Origin: Patescibacteria group bacterium UBA6023
GTDB taxonomy: Bacteria > Patescibacteriota > Minisyncoccia > Phycocordibacterales > UBA6899
NCBI GenBank assembly: GCA_002429425.1
Contig: DIZR01000059.1
Location: 1 to 11,496 of the forward strand
Direction of reading: 5' to 3'
Length of the DNA stretch: 11,496 bases
Positions 1 through 7,710 of the stretch are shown piece after piece; positions within the stretch are counted from its first letter, which is position 1; the number at the start of each line of letters is the position of its first letter. The notes under the pieces were generated by a model, which saw nothing but the letters and a program-made list of their open reading frames with translations, made no database searches and was not told where the DNA came from. The position numbers and the translations under genes were made by a program.

Positions 1-81
1 ATTGTATGTTGCAGGGGCGGCATAGGCTAGTCCTGGAGAGAAAAATGCAAGAAGAGTGATGATTTTACGTGATATTCCCAT
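1..81 (-). CDS. 5' end of a second pilin-like exported protein (partial, runs off left edge)
   Basis: Only the first 27 codons are inside the window, reading MGISRKIITLLAF and ending AAPATYN. They form a typical signal peptide: a short basic start, a hydrophobic core and a GLAYA-A cleavage site. The mature start AAPATYN is identical to that of the complete protein encoded at 150-1247, and 22 bases here (1-22) are identical to 1176-1197. This is therefore almost certainly a tandem paralogue of that pilin/peptidase-like protein. The ATG at 81 is chosen because a TATAAT box ends 6 nt before it, exactly as for two other genes in this window. Whether the paralogue also carries a C-terminal peptidase-like domain cannot be seen. 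Confidence 0.75.
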   Translation of the reverse strand, partial: MGISRKIITLLAFFSPGLAYAAPATYN

Positions 82-3650: not shown

Positions 3651-4166
3651 TTAGCTTCCCGTAATAATTTTTTTGGCTCCACCGGCAACTCCACCGATTA
3701 TCTTCTTCCCCACCTTCGCGATTGTTCCTACGAATGCTGCAACGAAGAATCCTATTGTTGCATCAGGAAGTATATTTAGTCCGGGGATCATTCCTATTAT
3801 AGTACTAATACTGATAATCACCAATCGCAAAAGCACACTTTGTTTTGTATATATAAAATAGACCATGGTAATGATGAATACCGTAAGGGAAACGAGCCAA
3901 CTCATGCCGATTGCAAAAAAAGAAATAGGGATACCAACTACTGCCCCAACGCCAGTGGCGCTTAATCCGACACCTAGTGATTCCAGTAGTCCCCAAACAA
4001 GATCAAGGAGATCTTTTGAAATCTCAATTCCCCCAACAAGCCAAAAAAGTAACCAATTAGTAGCCTTTTTTGCAGTACCCTCTCCTTCGGATGTTGGTTT
4101 TTCCGCTTTTTTCCCATATAATGGGGCTTTTCTTATTTTTGATTGAGCGCCCGCTTTCATTGCCAT
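3651..4166 (-). CDS. Small polytopic membrane protein of unknown function
   Basis: The protein has 171 residues. A basic, polar N-terminus (1-36, rich in Lys, Gly and Ser) is followed by several hydrophobic segments: an amphipathic stretch at 38-65, then membrane helices at about 68-86, 88-107, 111-130 and 134-152. It ends in a Lys/Gly-rich tail. No family is recognised. The ATG at 4166 (MAMKAG) is chosen over one at 4184 because the latter's second and third codons are themselves the TATAAT box, which sits 6 nt before 4166. It directly follows virB4 in gene order but has its own promoter box and is separated from virB4 by 202 bp of hairpin-bearing sequence. An accessory role in the secretion membrane complex is inferred only from position. 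Confidence 0.7.
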   Translation of the reverse strand: MAMKAGAQSKIRKAPLYGKKAEKPTSEGEGTAKKATNWLLFWLVGGIEISKDLLDLVWGLLESLGVGLSATGVGAVVGIPISFFAIGMSWLVSLTVFIITMVYFIYTKQSVLLRLVIISISTIIGMIPGLNILPDATIGFFVAAFVGTIAKVGKKIIGGVAGGAKKIITGS

Positions 4167-4180
4167 GTAATCATTATAGC
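4167..4180 (-). promoter_or_regulatory. -10 promoter box for a leaderless gene
   Basis: On the minus strand TATAAT lies at 4178-4173, preceded by GC and followed by GATTAC and the ATG at 4166. The box, the GC before it and the 6-nt spacing match the boxes at 88-95 and 7427-7434. No good -35 element is seen 16-18 nt further upstream. Confidence 0.65.
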
Positions 4181-4247
4181 GCATTAGTAGACTTCCACGG
4201 AGGAATTTTACTCAAACTGTTGATAGTGTTTTTTGTATTTGGCAGTT

Positions 4248-4287
4248 TCCAGGGAGAGACCTTCCAGAGCCAAGGACTCACCTTGGA
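4248..4287 (-). repeat. Mismatch-patterned hairpin repeat, copy D
   Basis: On the minus strand this reads as an imperfect hairpin. From the outside inwards it has a 7-position stem with one mismatch (TCCAAGG with CCCTGGA), a T-T mismatch, 3 bp (GAG with CTC), a second T-T mismatch, 4 bp (CCTT with AAGG) and the 8-nt loop GGCTCTGG. Over 36 nt (4285-4250) it matches copy A at 7477-7512 on the plus strand at 33 positions; two of the three changes lie in the loop and one in the outer arm. It lies between the stop of virB4 and the promoter of the next gene. No T-run follows, so it is not an obvious terminator. Confidence 0.75.
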
Positions 4288-4308
4288 TTCAAAGAAGGGA
4301 GTCGCTCC

Positions 4309-4362
4309 TTGGGATTATGAGGTTCGACTTCCCAAAACTGAGGACAAACCTCCTTACCCCAA
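4309..4362 (-). repeat. Mismatch-patterned hairpin repeat, diverged copy E
   Basis: On the minus strand GAGG (4322-4319 partner) pairs with CCTC, followed inward by 3 near-paired positions, a T-T mismatch, 4 positions with one mismatch, and the 8-nt loop AGTTTTGG. The loop fits the same NGYTYTGR pattern as copies A, C and D. The outer arm continues through scattered mismatches to a GGG/CCC plus TT/AA clamp. It begins only 7 nt after the virB4 stop codon. It is more degenerate than copies A and D and is recognised by layout and loop rather than by close identity. Between E and D (4288-4308) is a possible half copy (GGAGCGACTCC followed by TTCTTTGA). Confidence 0.55.
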
Positions 4363-4368
4363 AAATCA

Positions 4369-6168
4369 TTAACGTTGTGCCTCGGCGAGGTCCTTTTTCG
4401 CTTTCGCGATTGCGAGCATTTGTGCAGGATCGGAGCTTACGATTTGGTCTTCCGTGTATGATGCATAGATCTTGATCGCGACGTGTTTTAGTCCCGCAAA
4501 GAAAAGTCCCTCACCAACACCAGATTCAAGGAGGAGATATTTTTCTTCATCAGTAAGATGGAATGTTTGTTGGACAAGGTCAATCGTCGTTGGTGACTGT
4601 TTGAGGAGTATTTGGATCGAGGAATTCGTGAGAATTGGTAGTCCATATGGTGAGCGGAGAAAGTCATTCACATCCTGGGTGATCGTTGCAATACCAAGGA
4701 AATATTTACGTCCGCGTTTTGCAAGACTAAAGAGGAAAGATGCAGTGTCTTCAGATTTCATCATCCACCATGCTTCATCGACGACGAGAAGGCGTTTACG
4801 TAATTCTTTGCGTATTGCAGTCCAAATGTGGTGCGTAATGATATAGACTGCGACCGGCTTAAGCTCGTCTTCCATGTTGCGTACGGAAAACACAGTGAAG
4901 CGTTTCGTGATATCAACATTTGTTGGTTGATTTAAAAATCCTGACCATGTTCCACGGGTGTATTTTTCCAAACGTTGAAGTAATGATTCTGTTCCATCCA
5001 TTCCCGAAAGGACAAGTTCGAAATCAGAAAGGAGTGGCGGTTCGAGTTGAGTGAAATCAGTATCCGGAGAGATATCTTTGAGTGCGTACGTTTCTGCAAT
5101 TGCACGGTCGATGATTCCATCCTCTTCCGGAGTGAGTCCCCCGAGCATGATGCGGAAAAGTCCTACGAGGAAAATAATATTTGAGCGGAGCACATCTGCA
5201 CCAGACTCATCATCGCGAGGAGCAGGAAGATCAAATGGATTGATGTGATGCTCTGAAGTGAGTGAGATATTGAAGAATCTTCCACCTGTCGCTTCTGCAA
5301 GAAATGCGTATTCATTTTCAGGGTCGATAACGATAACATCGGCATCAAACATAAGTGTGCGAATGATTTCGAGTTTTGTTGTGTATGATTTTCCAGAACC
5401 AGATACCGCAAAGGTCACCGAATTATAGTTCGGCATTGAGAAACGATCGAAAAGTACTAATGATGCGTTGTGTCGATTGATTCCCCAGAGTATGCCCTTG
5501 TCTGAGGTAAGGTCAAATGAAACGAATGGAAAAATTGATGAAAGTGGTGCGGAATTGAGCTTGTAGTGCACTTCGAGCTCATCGGTCATAAGTGGGAGCA
5601 CACTACGATATGCTTGTTCTTGTTGGAATATTGCGGGTTTGAGATAAACTAATTTTGCATCAAGAATAGACTTGAGCTCACTTTCCGCTTTATCGAGTTC
5701 TGTTTTTTCATTTGCGTAGACGGTGATATACACTCCGACGTCGAACAGACGCTCCTGTGCCTGCTGGAGTTTGTCGCGCAAGTCTTCGAGGTCGTTATAG
5801 GCAATATCAAGAACAGGGTCGCGTACAAAGCCTTTTCGTTCGCGTTCATTGATCTGACTTTGTACTTCCGCAACTTTTTTTTGGAAGGAACGTAGCGCAA
5901 GTTCAGTTTCTACCGGATGGATCATTATGGAAATATCGTATACTTTGTCGAGGTTTATCACTGGGGTAAACCAATCTTGCGAAAGGAAGCGTGGATAGGA
6001 AATAACAAAGAGCGTGCGTGCTATTTTATCGCCAATATAAATGTCTTTTGGGGTGATCTTGATTGCGGCAGGAGCAAGAATATCCTTCATGTCGAGGTTT
6101 GTTGCCTCAAAGATATCTGTGGGAAGTACTCCGGTATTTAAATTATCAAATTCTTTTTTTTCTGCCAT
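4369..6168 (-). CDS. virB4: VirB4-family T4SS ATPase (lacking the N-terminal domain)
   Basis: This 599-residue protein is the energy-providing ATPase of type IV secretion systems, acting at the cytoplasmic face of the inner membrane. Residues 1-240 hold the middle VirB4 region, including a charged coiled-coil-like stretch (about 95-145). The ATPase core shows Walker A AVSGSGKS with K260, the family motif IDPENEY at D282, Walker B LLVVDEAWW with D464-E465, and a GRKYF stretch followed by ITQD with Q498. The first Gly of Walker A is Ala, which other VirB4/TraC proteins also show. At 599 residues it is shorter than a typical VirB4 (about 800) because the N-terminal part is encoded by the separate gene just upstream, 12 nt away. 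No Shine-Dalgarno sequence fits in that 12-nt gap, so translation probably depends on the preceding gene or on a leaderless-type mechanism. Confidence 0.95.
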   Translation of the reverse strand: MAEKKEFDNLNTGVLPTDIFEATNLDMKDILAPAAIKITPKDIYIGDKIARTLFVISYPRFLSQDWFTPVINLDKVYDISIMIHPVETELALRSFQKKVAEVQSQINERERKGFVRDPVLDIAYNDLEDLRDKLQQAQERLFDVGVYITVYANEKTELDKAESELKSILDAKLVYLKPAIFQQEQAYRSVLPLMTDELEVHYKLNSAPLSSIFPFVSFDLTSDKGILWGINRHNASLVLFDRFSMPNYNSVTFAVSGSGKSYTTKLEIIRTLMFDADVIVIDPENEYAFLAEATGGRFFNISLTSEHHINPFDLPAPRDDESGADVLRSNIIFLVGLFRIMLGGLTPEEDGIIDRAIAETYALKDISPDTDFTQLEPPLLSDFELVLSGMDGTESLLQRLEKYTRGTWSGFLNQPTNVDITKRFTVFSVRNMEDELKPVAVYIITHHIWTAIRKELRKRLLVVDEAWWMMKSEDTASFLFSLAKRGRKYFLGIATITQDVNDFLRSPYGLPILTNSSIQILLKQSPTTIDLVQQTFHLTDEEKYLLLESGVGEGLFFAGLKHVAIKIYASYTEDQIVSSDPAQMLAIAKAKKDLAEAQR

Positions 6169-6180
6169 AAAATATGTATA

Positions 6181-6825
6181 TTATGCGACTGATGATTCAA
6201 GCTCTCCGGGATTGAATTTTTTGTAGAATAATTCGGTAATCTCCTCCGTGCCAAGCCGTACGGTGCGGAGATCGCAACGTGCAAGACCTTGTTCAACGAT
6301 CGATACACGTTGTTCGAGTTGAATGCGCGCTTCCTCGAAATTTTGCACCTCCGCCGCGGTCATTTTTTTCTTTCCACCCCCACGCTTGAACAGTCCTGAA
6401 ATTCCCCCTCCACCGGAATTTTTTGAAACCAGGGATCCTCCCGCATATGGAATGACGATGAAAAAATTCTTGGACATAATGTTTGTATGACTCGTGAAGT
6501 CTCTGATGAAACTAATATACTCATGAACTTGAATTTTCATCGCATCAACGAGTTGCGCTTTTTCACGTTCTTCGAGCATGGTAAGGTACGGACGAATGTC
6601 TAAACGTTTTGATTGAATAGAAATTTGAATTGGAAACTCAAGTGAGTTGAGAAAATTCTGAAACTGCATGAGGATCGCTCCCTGCTCATCGCCCGACTTG
6701 AGGCCAAAATTGAGCGATGAGGTCATGAGCATCATGCGAAGGTCGCCATTGTTTAAGATCATGATACCGTTTTTGATATCGCGTATTGGAACAAAATCTT
6801 GTGTTGGTTTTCCTGGGGTTGCCAT
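6181..6825 (-). CDS. TraC-like N-terminal domain of VirB4 as a separate protein
   Basis: The protein has 214 residues. It starts with VPIRDIKNGIMILNNGD, the entry strand pattern of TraC/VirB4 N-terminal domains. It continues through mixed alpha/beta segments and ends with a pattern in which QRVSIVEQGLARCDLRTVRL leads to TEEITELFYKKFNP, recurrent in the N-terminal domain of VirB4-family proteins. Between them, at about 130-155, is a Gly- and Lys-rich flexible loop. There is no Walker motif. The neighbouring ATPase lacks exactly this region, so the two proteins most likely assemble into one VirB4-like unit. This split arrangement, following a PrgI gene, is known from Patescibacteria and resembles PrgI/PrgJ loci of Gram-positive conjugative elements. 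The ATG at 6825 is supported by a TATAAT box 8 nt upstream. Confidence 0.88.
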   Translation of the reverse strand: MATPGKPTQDFVPIRDIKNGIMILNNGDLRMMLMTSSLNFGLKSGDEQGAILMQFQNFLNSLEFPIQISIQSKRLDIRPYLTMLEEREKAQLVDAMKIQVHEYISFIRDFTSHTNIMSKNFFIVIPYAGGSLVSKNSGGGGISGLFKRGGGKKKMTAAEVQNFEEARIQLEQRVSIVEQGLARCDLRTVRLGTEEITELFYKKFNPGELESSVA

Positions 6826-7435: not shown

Positions 7436-7469
7436 TGATATAAATATTTCAAGGAAAACATGGTCTATA

Positions 7470-7519
7470 AAATTGGCAAGGTGAGTCCTTGGCTTTGAAA
7501 GGTCTCTCCTTGCCAATTT
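7470..7519 (+). repeat. Mismatch-patterned hairpin repeat, copy A
   Basis: A perfect 12-bp outer stem (AAATTGGCAAGG with CCTTGCCAATTT, 7470-7481 and 7508-7519) is followed inward by T7482-T7507 mismatch, GAG/CTC, T7486-T7503 mismatch, CCTT/AAGG (7487-7490 with 7499-7502) and the 8-nt loop GGCTTTGA. It is the cleanest member of the family and matches copy D at 33 of 36 core positions. On the minus strand the stem is followed by TATAG and on the plus strand by a T-rich stretch, so a terminator role for this copy is possible. That would not explain the paired mismatches or the conserved loop. Confidence 0.82.
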
Positions 7520-7526
7520 GAATTTT

Positions 7527-7578
7527 GTTTCCCGAGGAGTTACCTCCGCGAAGACGCCGAGGAAACACCTTCGGAAAC
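7527..7578 (+). repeat. Mismatch-patterned hairpin, variant copy B
   Basis: The layout is the same as copies A and C but with other bases. A 6-bp clamp (GTTTCC/GGAAAC) is followed by C-C mismatch, 4 positions (GAGG/CCTT, one G-T), A-A mismatch (7538 with 7567), 3 bp (GTT/AAC), A-A mismatch (7542 with 7563), 4 bp (CCTC/GAGG), C-C mismatch, 3 bp (GCG/CGC) and an AAGA tetraloop. The 4-3-4-3 spacing of single mismatches is exact. The different mismatch bases with the same spacing suggest that the spacing, not the sequence, is what is kept. Confidence 0.65.
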
Positions 7579-7585
7579 TCACTGA

Positions 7586-7635
7586 GAGTTTTGGAGGTGA
7601 TTCTTTTGCTTTGAAAGGTGTCTCCTCAGAAACTT
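7586..7635 (+). repeat. Mismatch-patterned hairpin repeat, copy C
   Basis: From outside: a 7-position stem (7586-7592 with 7629-7635, with wobbles), G7593-A7628 mismatch, GAGG/CCTC, T7598-T7623 mismatch, GAT/GTC (one T-G), T7602-T7619 mismatch, CTTT/AAGG (one T-G), and the 8-nt loop TGCTTTGA. Relative to copy A, the outer 4 bp changed from AAGG/CCTT to GAGG/CCTC, including a compensated A-T to G-C pair. GAG/CTC changed to GAT/GTC, which stays paired through a wobble. It lies 8 nt after copy B and 75 nt from the end of the upstream gene. Confidence 0.72.
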
Positions 7636-7710
7636 ATTTGGAAATGGTTAATTAGGGTCGGTATAATCACTAACGAAGACGCTGATGCGACCTCATATAA
7701 TGTTCTGCGG
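7636..7710. other. Rest of the 290-bp non-coding region, with a possible plus-strand promoter
   Basis: This stretch lies between the hairpin cluster and the end of the gene at 7711. It holds TATAAT at 7662-7667 with TTGGAA 18 nt upstream (7638-7643), and a second TATAAT at 7696-7701, both on the plus strand. A loose palindrome GGTCG/CGACC (7656-7660 with 7688-7692) encloses CGAAGACGC (7674-7682), a 9-mer that is also the tip of hairpin B (7549-7557). No plus-strand gene follows, so any transcript would be antisense to 7711-8199. Support is weak. Confidence 0.25.

What the first reader, a model, noticed from the sequence alone, without database searches (positions are those of the whole stretch)
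7470..7635. Three back-to-back hairpins with single mismatches at fixed 3- and 4-bp spacing
Copies A (7470-7519), B (7527-7578) and C (7586-7635) sit 7 nt apart. Each has stem, mismatch, 3 bp, mismatch, 4 bp, then a loop or tip. The mismatches are T-T in A and C, and A-A (with C-C further in and out) in B. A and C share the 8-nt loop pattern (GGCTTTGA, TGCTTTGA). Between A and C the stems change while staying paired or wobble-paired (AAGG/CCTT to GAGG/CCTC; GAG/CTC to GAT/GTC). Terminators and ordinary REP sequences do not need regular symmetric mismatches, so this looks like a selected RNA or single-stranded DNA fold. I do not recognise it as a known class; that is a statement of my knowledge, not of a search.
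Basis: partly seen in the sequence, partly recalled or inferred. Interest (0 to 1): 0.8.

Follow-up and report, generated by a model that had tools for sequence, protein, structure and literature searches.

The report
Mobile DNA hairpin pairs in Lloydbacteria
The three hairpins are copies of a short DNA repeat that folds back on itself and is scattered through the small genomes of one group of uncultured Patescibacteria, sometimes sitting in frame inside genes, and it closely resembles the REP/REPIN repeats that other bacteria's RAYT enzymes are thought to spread.

Summary
The hairpins are real and beyond chance. A and C are copies of a dispersed repeat; B is a related copy on the opposite strand. 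The core AAGG-TGAGT-CCTT-GGCTTTGA-AAGG-TCTCT-CCTT recurs in the own genome, up to 36 of 36 nt identical; strong matches lie in Ca. Lloydbacteria and a few unnamed MAGs. Each arm is itself a small palindrome, AAGG-N5-CCTT: an inverted doublet, like a REPIN. The 'regular mismatches' are the T residues bordering each unit's loop; the '3 bp' are the loop centres, paired in 25 of 27 contexts. Units of this architecture lie beside 17 of 47 RAYT (Y1 transposase) genes examined; G004's RAYT unit also builds that genome's doublets. Three copies sit in frame in two genes; two of the three are clearly absent from orthologues. The orthologous intergenic region lacks A/B/C in the 5 relatives searched. Best reading: an untagged, REPIN-like, non-autonomous ssDNA-hairpin mobile element, probably RAYT-mobilised. 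No cognate RAYT was found for the A-type unit itself. New variant of a known kind.

The parts
7470..7519 (+). Copy A: doublet, unit 1 AAGGTGAGTCCTT (7478-7490), 8-nt loop GGCTTTGA, unit 2 AAGGTCTCTCCTT (7499-7511), outer arms AAATTGGC/GCCAATTT
   Evidence: (74.6 bits)
7527..7578 (-). Copy B: related doublet in opposite orientation, 12-nt loop GGCGTCTTCGCG; a similar copy is at G000:C2:357-410
   Evidence: (minus strand 24.6 bits; L076 357-410)
7586..7635 (+). Copy C: diverged A-type doublet (loop TGCTTTGA)
   Evidence: 67.6 bits
7636..7652 (+). 3' flank of C resembling the outer half of a longer inverted repeat that encloses the core in copies of G003 and, less closely, G001
   Evidence: by inspection
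4243..4292 (-). Copy D: A-type doublet between the gene for the VirB4 ATPase part (4369-6168) and the next gene (3651-4184)
   Evidence: 67.4 bits; its 61-nt stretch does not fold better than shuffles
4311..4360 (-). Copy E: weak, degenerate neighbour of D
   Evidence: 24.8 bits

Best explanation
The hairpins are copies of a non-autonomous, dispersed mobile DNA element with REPIN anatomy: two inverted copies of a small palindromic unit (AAGG-N5-CCTT) around a short spacer, the whole folding into one long imperfect hairpin in single-stranded DNA. SHOWN: doublet anatomy; covariation of loop centres and outer arms; multiple copies; strong matches only in Lloydbacteria and some unnamed MAGs; in-frame copies in two genes, two of three clearly missing from orthologues; absence from the orthologous intergenic site in the 5 relatives searched; RAYT (Y1 tyrosine transposase) genes of the order often beside units of the same AAGG-N5-CCTT architecture; in G004 the RAYT's own unit recurs in that genome's doublets. 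INFERRED: a RAYT binds the folded unit in ssDNA, cuts beside it and copies or moves the doublet; the T-N3-T loops of A-type units are recognition features on one strand, and they appear as T.T mismatches when the two units pair end to end. A, B and C would be three insertions clustered in one permissive intergenic region of a T4SS operon, without function for that operon.
For: Folding z-scores of A, B, C. Dispersed copies in own genome. Covariance-model matches at E<=0.1 in 10 of 60 relatives, those below 1e-10 only in G000, G001, G003, G004 of the same genus. Loop centres pair (G-T counted) in 25 of 27 distinct contexts; outer-arm pairing of 15 T-type contexts 101 of 135 cells against 84.9 in shuffles, 0 of 2000 as high; P1 stem of the 12 A-ending contexts 73 of 96 against 56.7, 0 of 2000. 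In-frame copies: TatD-family DNase of G004, absent in G001, G002, G005 and G003; first copy of a 322-aa protein of G003, absent in G001 and G004. Gene order kept but hairpins absent in 5 relatives. RAYT link: 17 of 47 RAYT loci have AAGG-N5-CCTT within 600 nt of the domain match; 45 units in 68,502 nt near against 10 in 85,130 nt farther off, control GGAA-N5-TTCC 3 against 2; 19 of 47 have an upstream hairpin of 8 or more bp sharing a 12-mer with the downstream flank. Generic doublets: 15 of 60 genomes, 127 forward and 135 reverse matches in G004, control 1 match over all 60. G004's RAYT carries GTACAAGGTCCGACCTTGTAC inside its gene and near-identical units around it; the same unit makes G004 doublets.
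Against: No A-type unit lies within 600 nt of any of the 47 RAYT domain matches examined; the RAYTs within about 1.5 kb of an A-type copy in G003:C16 and L139 are flanked by other units. No conserved GTAG/CGTC tag: GTAG lies in the 16 nt 5' of the core in 2 of 15 T-type rows (by eye). RAYT presence is a poor predictor: 40 of 60 genomes have a Y1 match; G002 has six but no core-pattern match and one weak model match (E 0.028); G045 has 14 CAAGGN5CCTTG places (control 1) and no Y1 match, while G034 has six Y1 matches and none of these palindromes. In the own genome the shorter pattern AAGGN5CCTT is only 54 against 21 in the control. Copy D does not fold better than shuffles. Model matches of E 2e-9 to 5e-8 also occur outside the genus, in G053, G051 and G027. 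The second in-frame copy in G003 lies in a poorly aligned linker, and G002 has an extra stretch of its own there. Shuffle controls do not remove relatedness among copies. No movement was observed. 8 of 12 A-ending copies lie downstream of a same-strand ORF (7 of 15 for T-type), which a transcript-level role could also explain.
Confidence: 0.78

Rival explanations
1. A structured RNA element (3'-UTR stabiliser, attenuator or small RNA) whose fold is kept by selection on the transcript.
For: Strong folds of A, B, C; compensatory changes; 8 of 12 copies of the A-ending subfamily lie 3' of a same-strand ORF; 10 of 12 of these keep an unpaired GGAGAAGTT-like segment (by eye).
Against: A and C are antisense to the T4SS operon while B and D are sense. 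Copies lie inside coding frames. The orthologous intergenic region lacks them in the 5 relatives searched. No Rfam match at gathering score in the window; the best sub-threshold one (FuFi-1, 21.2 bits against 59.6) is not repeated in four other loci with A-type copies.
Confidence: 0.1
2. Intrinsic transcription terminators or other ordinary intergenic hairpins of the operon.
For: Intergenic position; one terminator-like single unit on the minus strand, 1 found against 0.3 in shuffles.
Against: No T-run after the full hairpins; exact core repeats elsewhere, and in frame inside genes.
Confidence: 0.03
3. Miniature inverted-repeat elements moved by another transposase (not a RAYT), such as an IS element with matching ends.
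For: No RAYT with A-type flanks was found; a longer inverted repeat encloses the core in some copies; G045 has the palindromes without a Y1 match.
Against: Units match the architecture found beside 17 of 47 RAYT genes, and in G004 the RAYT unit itself builds doublets. IS elements with these ends were not searched for.
Confidence: 0.09

Closest known systems
REPINs / BIMEs (REP doublets forming hairpins) with RAYT (TnpA-REP)
   Same: Two inverted palindromic units round a spacer forming a hairpin, compensatory changes, dispersed copies, clusters with mixed orientation, RAYT genes beside units of the same architecture
   Different: No conserved GTAG or CGTC tag; unit is a 4-6 bp stem with a 5-nt T-N3-T or T-N3-A loop; some copies in frame in genes; cognate RAYT of the A-type unit not found; host is a small-genome patescibacterium
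Rickettsia palindromic elements (RPE)
   Same: Palindromic repeats tolerated as in-frame insertions in protein genes
   Different: 34-50 nt core against ~150 bp (PMC10969869, passages); doublet anatomy; 22 of 34 copies checked lie in no ORF of 90 aa or more; sequence relation not tested
IS200/IS605 subterminal hairpins and derived miniature elements
   Same: Hairpins with unpaired bases read in ssDNA by a Y1 transposase
   Different: No guide/cleavage tetranucleotide recognised; IS ends or an IS-borne gene round the copies were not systematically searched for

Membership tests
REPIN (REP doublet forming a hairpin) | Two inverted REP-like palindromic units round a spacer, folding as one hairpin | tested here: met
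   copy D is an exception in the shuffle test
REPIN (REP doublet forming a hairpin) | Many dispersed, mainly extragenic copies in a genome | tested here: met
   A-type: own genome; generic doublets 127 forward and 135 reverse matches in G004; 22 of 34 copies in no ORF of 90 aa or more, 12 inside some mechanical ORF
REPIN (REP doublet forming a hairpin) | Cognate RAYT gene flanked by the same unit | tested here: inconclusive
   Met for the TCCGA unit of G004; no A-type unit within 600 nt of 47 RAYT domain matches, all 20 of the genus included; own genome is 81.9% complete
Tagged REP superfamilies (GTAG / CGTC) | Conserved unpaired GTAG (GTGG) or CGTC tetranucleotide at the foot of the hairpin | tested here: not met
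   GTAG in the 16 nt 5' of the core in 2 of 15 T-type rows, by eye; so not filed as a tagged REP. PMC3733652 (passages) notes REP-like families without tags
RAYT (TnpA-REP) | Y1 HuH transposase domain and curated REP-associated model | tested here: inconclusive
   Two genus RAYTs pass the Pfam PF01797 cut-off (31.2 and 35.4 against 23); NF047646 REP_Tyr_transpos matches at 45.3 and 46.0 bits, below its cut-off 80
Rickettsia palindromic element | About 150-bp palindromic element inserted in frame in ORFs | tested here: not met
   In-frame insertion met, length 34-50 nt not met
Intrinsic terminator | Hairpin followed by a T-run | tested here: not met
   only one single-unit match, on the minus strand
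Rfam RNA family | Match at or above gathering score | tested here: not met
   none in the window; FuFi-1 21.2 bits against 59.6
REPIN mobility | Cleavage and movement of the ssDNA hairpin by RAYT | not testable with these tools
   needs biochemistry or population reads

The most novel reading that the evidence does not exclude
A patescibacterial REPIN-RAYT system without the GTAG/CGTC tag, in which strand identity is carried by T-N3-T loops (seen as T.T mismatches in the doublet) and whose units keep an open reading frame (QGDSLALKGVSLD-like), so that they can enter protein genes, and even the RAYT gene itself, in frame.
Probability: 0.3. Interest if true: 0.62.

Novelty: new variant of a known kind. 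Interest (0 to 1): 0.46.

Why it matters
Patescibacteria have small, streamlined genomes (own knowledge), yet one 1.4-Mb Lloydbacterial genome has 127 forward and 135 reverse matches to the doublet pattern, roughly 130 places since most doublets count on both strands. The system offers a test of how RAYTs might recognise a unit without a tag, whether strand choice can rest on loop bases, and how palindromic DNA enters protein genes without destroying them. I found no paper on REP or palindromic repeats in these bacteria in the open library: searches returned 0 papers; the 10 of 249 papers listed hold no mention of a REP-associated tyrosine transposase; the 10 papers do not concern this by title and start of abstract. 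Subscription papers and preprints were not searchable.

Tried and rejected
Terminators (no T-run). Rfam families (FuFi-1 and c-di-GMP-II matches are far below gathering scores). TIGR stem-loop arrays, known from CPR bacteria (PMC12045711, passages seen): rejected because copies are mostly solitary and not an array; a Tas/Nop gene was not searched for. Phage origin: 0 matches in viral contigs. Integron attC sites were considered from memory only and not tested.

Solved-structure match of one RAYT by sequence: none at E<=1. My first pattern had a spacer one base too short and found 2 weak matches in 41 genomes; it is replaced. The A-ending subfamily does not pair in the outer arms in simple register (46 of 108 cells, shuffle mean 47.2); its stem lies 10 nt off on the 3' side (that offset was the best of 13 looked at). 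A direct repeat GATAC flanks one in-frame copy in G003, but the G001 orthologue does not show the uninterrupted target, so no target-site duplication is claimed. One GTDB pattern match (Clostridiales, L136) has unpaired loop centres and is probably chance; it was kept in the counts. One search counted inner T.T in 28 of 29 GC..TG-loop doublets without forcing T, but in loci partly gathered with a T-forcing pattern. Rows dropped: of the 62 matches, 40 were looked at and 34 (opposite-strand duplicates and the weakest left out). One search aligned 4 of the TatD loci; the G003 protein was caught only, the others not. One search covered 5 of the 6 loci with kept gene order (L092 was left out).

Full report
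OBSERVATION. The three hairpins lie where stated, 7 nt apart. As RNA on the + strand they fold at -28.0, -24.3 and -18.6 kcal/mol, z -7.6, -5.0, -3.6, and 0 of 200 shuffles did as well for each; on the minus strand C does not stand out (z -1.0). The mismatch pattern is as described. B is in the opposite orientation: its reverse complement has the same T.T positions as A and C. By sequence a strong fourth copy, D, lies at 4243-4292 on the minus strand, although its 61-nt stretch folds no better than shuffles, and a weak fifth, E, at 4311-4360.

DISPERSED REPEAT. The window is contig C85 of an 890,675-base, 101-contig genome of 81.9% completeness. DNA search of that genome with 7440-7650 gave 11 matches at E<=10, among them 36 of 36 nt in C86, 97% over 36 nt in C42, 33 of 33 nt in C70, and two places in C2. 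Flanks differ between copies. A covariance model from six copies found matches at E<=0.1 in 10 of 60 relatives, with stricter filters and at most 100 candidates scored per genome. Those below 1e-10 are all in the same genus, in G000, G001, G003 and G004; G002 of that genus has one weak match; G053, G051 and G027 of the order have matches of 2e-9 to 5e-8. The core pattern gave 20 matches in 4 of 60 genomes and 0 for the reversed pattern. In the GTDB contigs it gave 20 stretches: 11 in two Ca. Lloydbacteria MAGs, 2 in a Parcubacteria MAG, 6 in MAGs titled only 'bacterium' and 1 in a Clostridiales MAG; contig lengths identify the first three MAGs as G003, G004 and G001. None occurred in viral contigs.

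ANATOMY. Each arm is itself a short palindrome, AAGG-N5-CCTT. In A-type copies unit 1 is AAGG-T-GAG-T-CCTT and unit 2 AAGG-T-CTC-T-CCTT, separated by GGCTTTGA. When the doublet folds end to end, the 4-bp segments are the unit stems, the 3-bp segment is the pairing of the two loop centres, and the mismatches are the T residues at both edges of each loop. In 27 distinct contexts found by a pattern that leaves the loop centres free, all three centre bases pair (G-T counted) in 25, with GAG/CTC, GAC/GTC, CAC/GTG, TTC/GAA and others. Outer arms, also free in the pattern, pair in 101 of 135 cells for the 15 T-type contexts, against 84.9 when arms are exchanged between copies (0 of 2000 as high). A second subfamily (12 contexts) ends unit 2 with A; 10 of the 12 have a further stem P1 after an unpaired GGAGAAGTT-like segment. 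P1 pairs in 73 of 96 cells against 56.7 (0 of 2000), at an offset chosen as the best of 13. These controls do not remove common descent of copies.

MOBILITY. In G004 a TatD-family DNase gene (TIGR00010, above cut-off) holds an A-type copy in frame (GKIQGDSLALKGVFLDFD). Orthologues in G001, G002 and G005 lack that stretch in the alignment, and the G003 protein also lacks it (printed). In G003 a 322-aa protein holds two copies in frame. The first is clearly absent from the G001 and G004 orthologues; the second lies in a poorly aligned linker where absence is less certain, and G002 has an extra stretch of its own. The genes on both sides of A/B/C (PrgI family, and the 162-aa gene) are kept in order in six relatives. 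A model search of five of these six loci at E<=1 found no match in the region between them; the only match place, in L088 (the same place as in L013), lies outside it. So the hairpins look like additions to this site and not a conserved leader of the operon. Of 34 copies checked, 22 lie in no ORF of 90 aa or more. Orientation relative to the upstream ORF is mixed: same strand in 8 of 12 A-ending and 7 of 15 T-type contexts, by mechanical ORFs.

RAYT LINK. Y1 transposase matches (PF01797) occur in 40 of 60 relatives, 39 above cut-off, 3 matches in the own genome. Several of the ~220-aa class are flanked by palindromes of this architecture, for example TGTCAAGGTTGAACCTTGACA (G000:C3), CTCCAAGGTTCCACCTTGGAG (G003:C16), ATCCAAGGACTCCCCTTGGAT (G027:C13). 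I examined 47 RAYT loci: all 20 matches of the genus, 25 of the 30 loci returned, and two others. AAGG-N5-CCTT lies within 600 nt of the domain match in 17 of 47; 45 units in 68,502 nt near against 10 in 85,130 nt farther off, and 3 against 2 for the control GGAA-N5-TTCC. Any hairpin of 8 or more bp: 70 in 27,459 bp near against 38 in 101,563 bp farther, and 19 of 47 loci have an upstream hairpin sharing a 12-mer with the downstream flank. The pattern AAGGTN4CCTT-N4-20-AAGGTN4CCTT is found in 15 of 60 genomes, with 127 forward and 135 reverse matches in G004 (most doublets count on both strands), against one control match over all 60. CAAGGN5CCTTG counts 30 in the own genome (control 0) and 184 in G004 (control 5), in 44 of 60 genomes overall; the shorter AAGGN5CCTT is 54 against 21 in the own genome. 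G004's RAYT has GTACAAGGTCCGACCTTGTAC inside its coding frame and near-identical units before and after the gene; the same unit, loop TCCGA, makes up doublets of that genome.

AGAINST. No A-type unit lies within 600 nt of any of the 47 RAYT domain matches; this is the main gap. The link is not one to one: G045 has 14 CAAGGN5CCTTG places and no Y1 match, G034 has six Y1 matches and no such place, G002 has six Y1 matches and no core-pattern match.

COMPARISON. In print, REPINs are inverted REP doublets forming hairpins with common compensatory changes (PMC3116915, passages); REPs share a tetranucleotide guide 5' of the hairpin foot (PMC6006769, passages); E. coli REPs need a mismatch bulge for recognition and iREP on the other strand is not processed (PMC8266576, passages); REP-like families without tags are noted (PMC3733652, passages); in-frame palindromic insertions are known from Rickettsia (PMC10969869, passages). 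The present element works like a REPIN, but lacks a conserved tag, so I call it REPIN-like and do not file it as a tagged REP.

MECHANISM (inferred). During replication the unit strand folds; a RAYT reads the unit stem and its T-bounded loop on one strand, cuts beside it and moves or copies the doublet into a new site. The long pairing of the doublet protects or marks the intermediate. The A/B/C cluster would then be a repeated landing place in a permissive intergenic region of a T4SS operon.

VERDICT. New variant of a known kind, moderate interest.

Noticed in passing
window 4369-6168 and 6181-6825, minus: The VirB4-like T4SS ATPase is encoded as two adjacent ORFs 12 nt apart: an N-terminal piece and the P-loop part.
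   Followed up: no
   Followed up: partly
L110 1439-1459: The RAYT gene of G004 carries its own REP-like unit in frame inside the coding sequence.
   Followed up: partly
L126, L129, L130, L132, L134, L135, L137, L138, L141, L143: Subfamily with a conserved unpaired GGAGAAGTT-like segment between hairpin and a covarying outer stem; its role is unexplained.
   Followed up: partly
L069 8987-9036, L070 1428-1477, L075 3235-3284, L082 3897-3964, L084 5918-5982: The A-type core sits at the tip of a longer imperfect inverted repeat (TACCATCTC...GAGATGGTA in several of these; L084 only in its 5' half), perhaps a larger parent element (by eye).
   Followed up: partly
window 1-54 and 1176-1229: Direct repeat of 54 nt, 83% identical; on the minus strand it looks like the signal-peptide-like N-terminal part of two neighbouring genes (by eye).
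   Followed up: no
L069 5554-5603: Direct repeat GATAC on both sides of an in-frame copy; not confirmed as a target-site duplication.
   Followed up: partly
G045: 14 CAAGGN5CCTTG palindromes (control 1) in a genome without a Y1 transposase match: orphan repeats or a missed gene.
   Followed up: no
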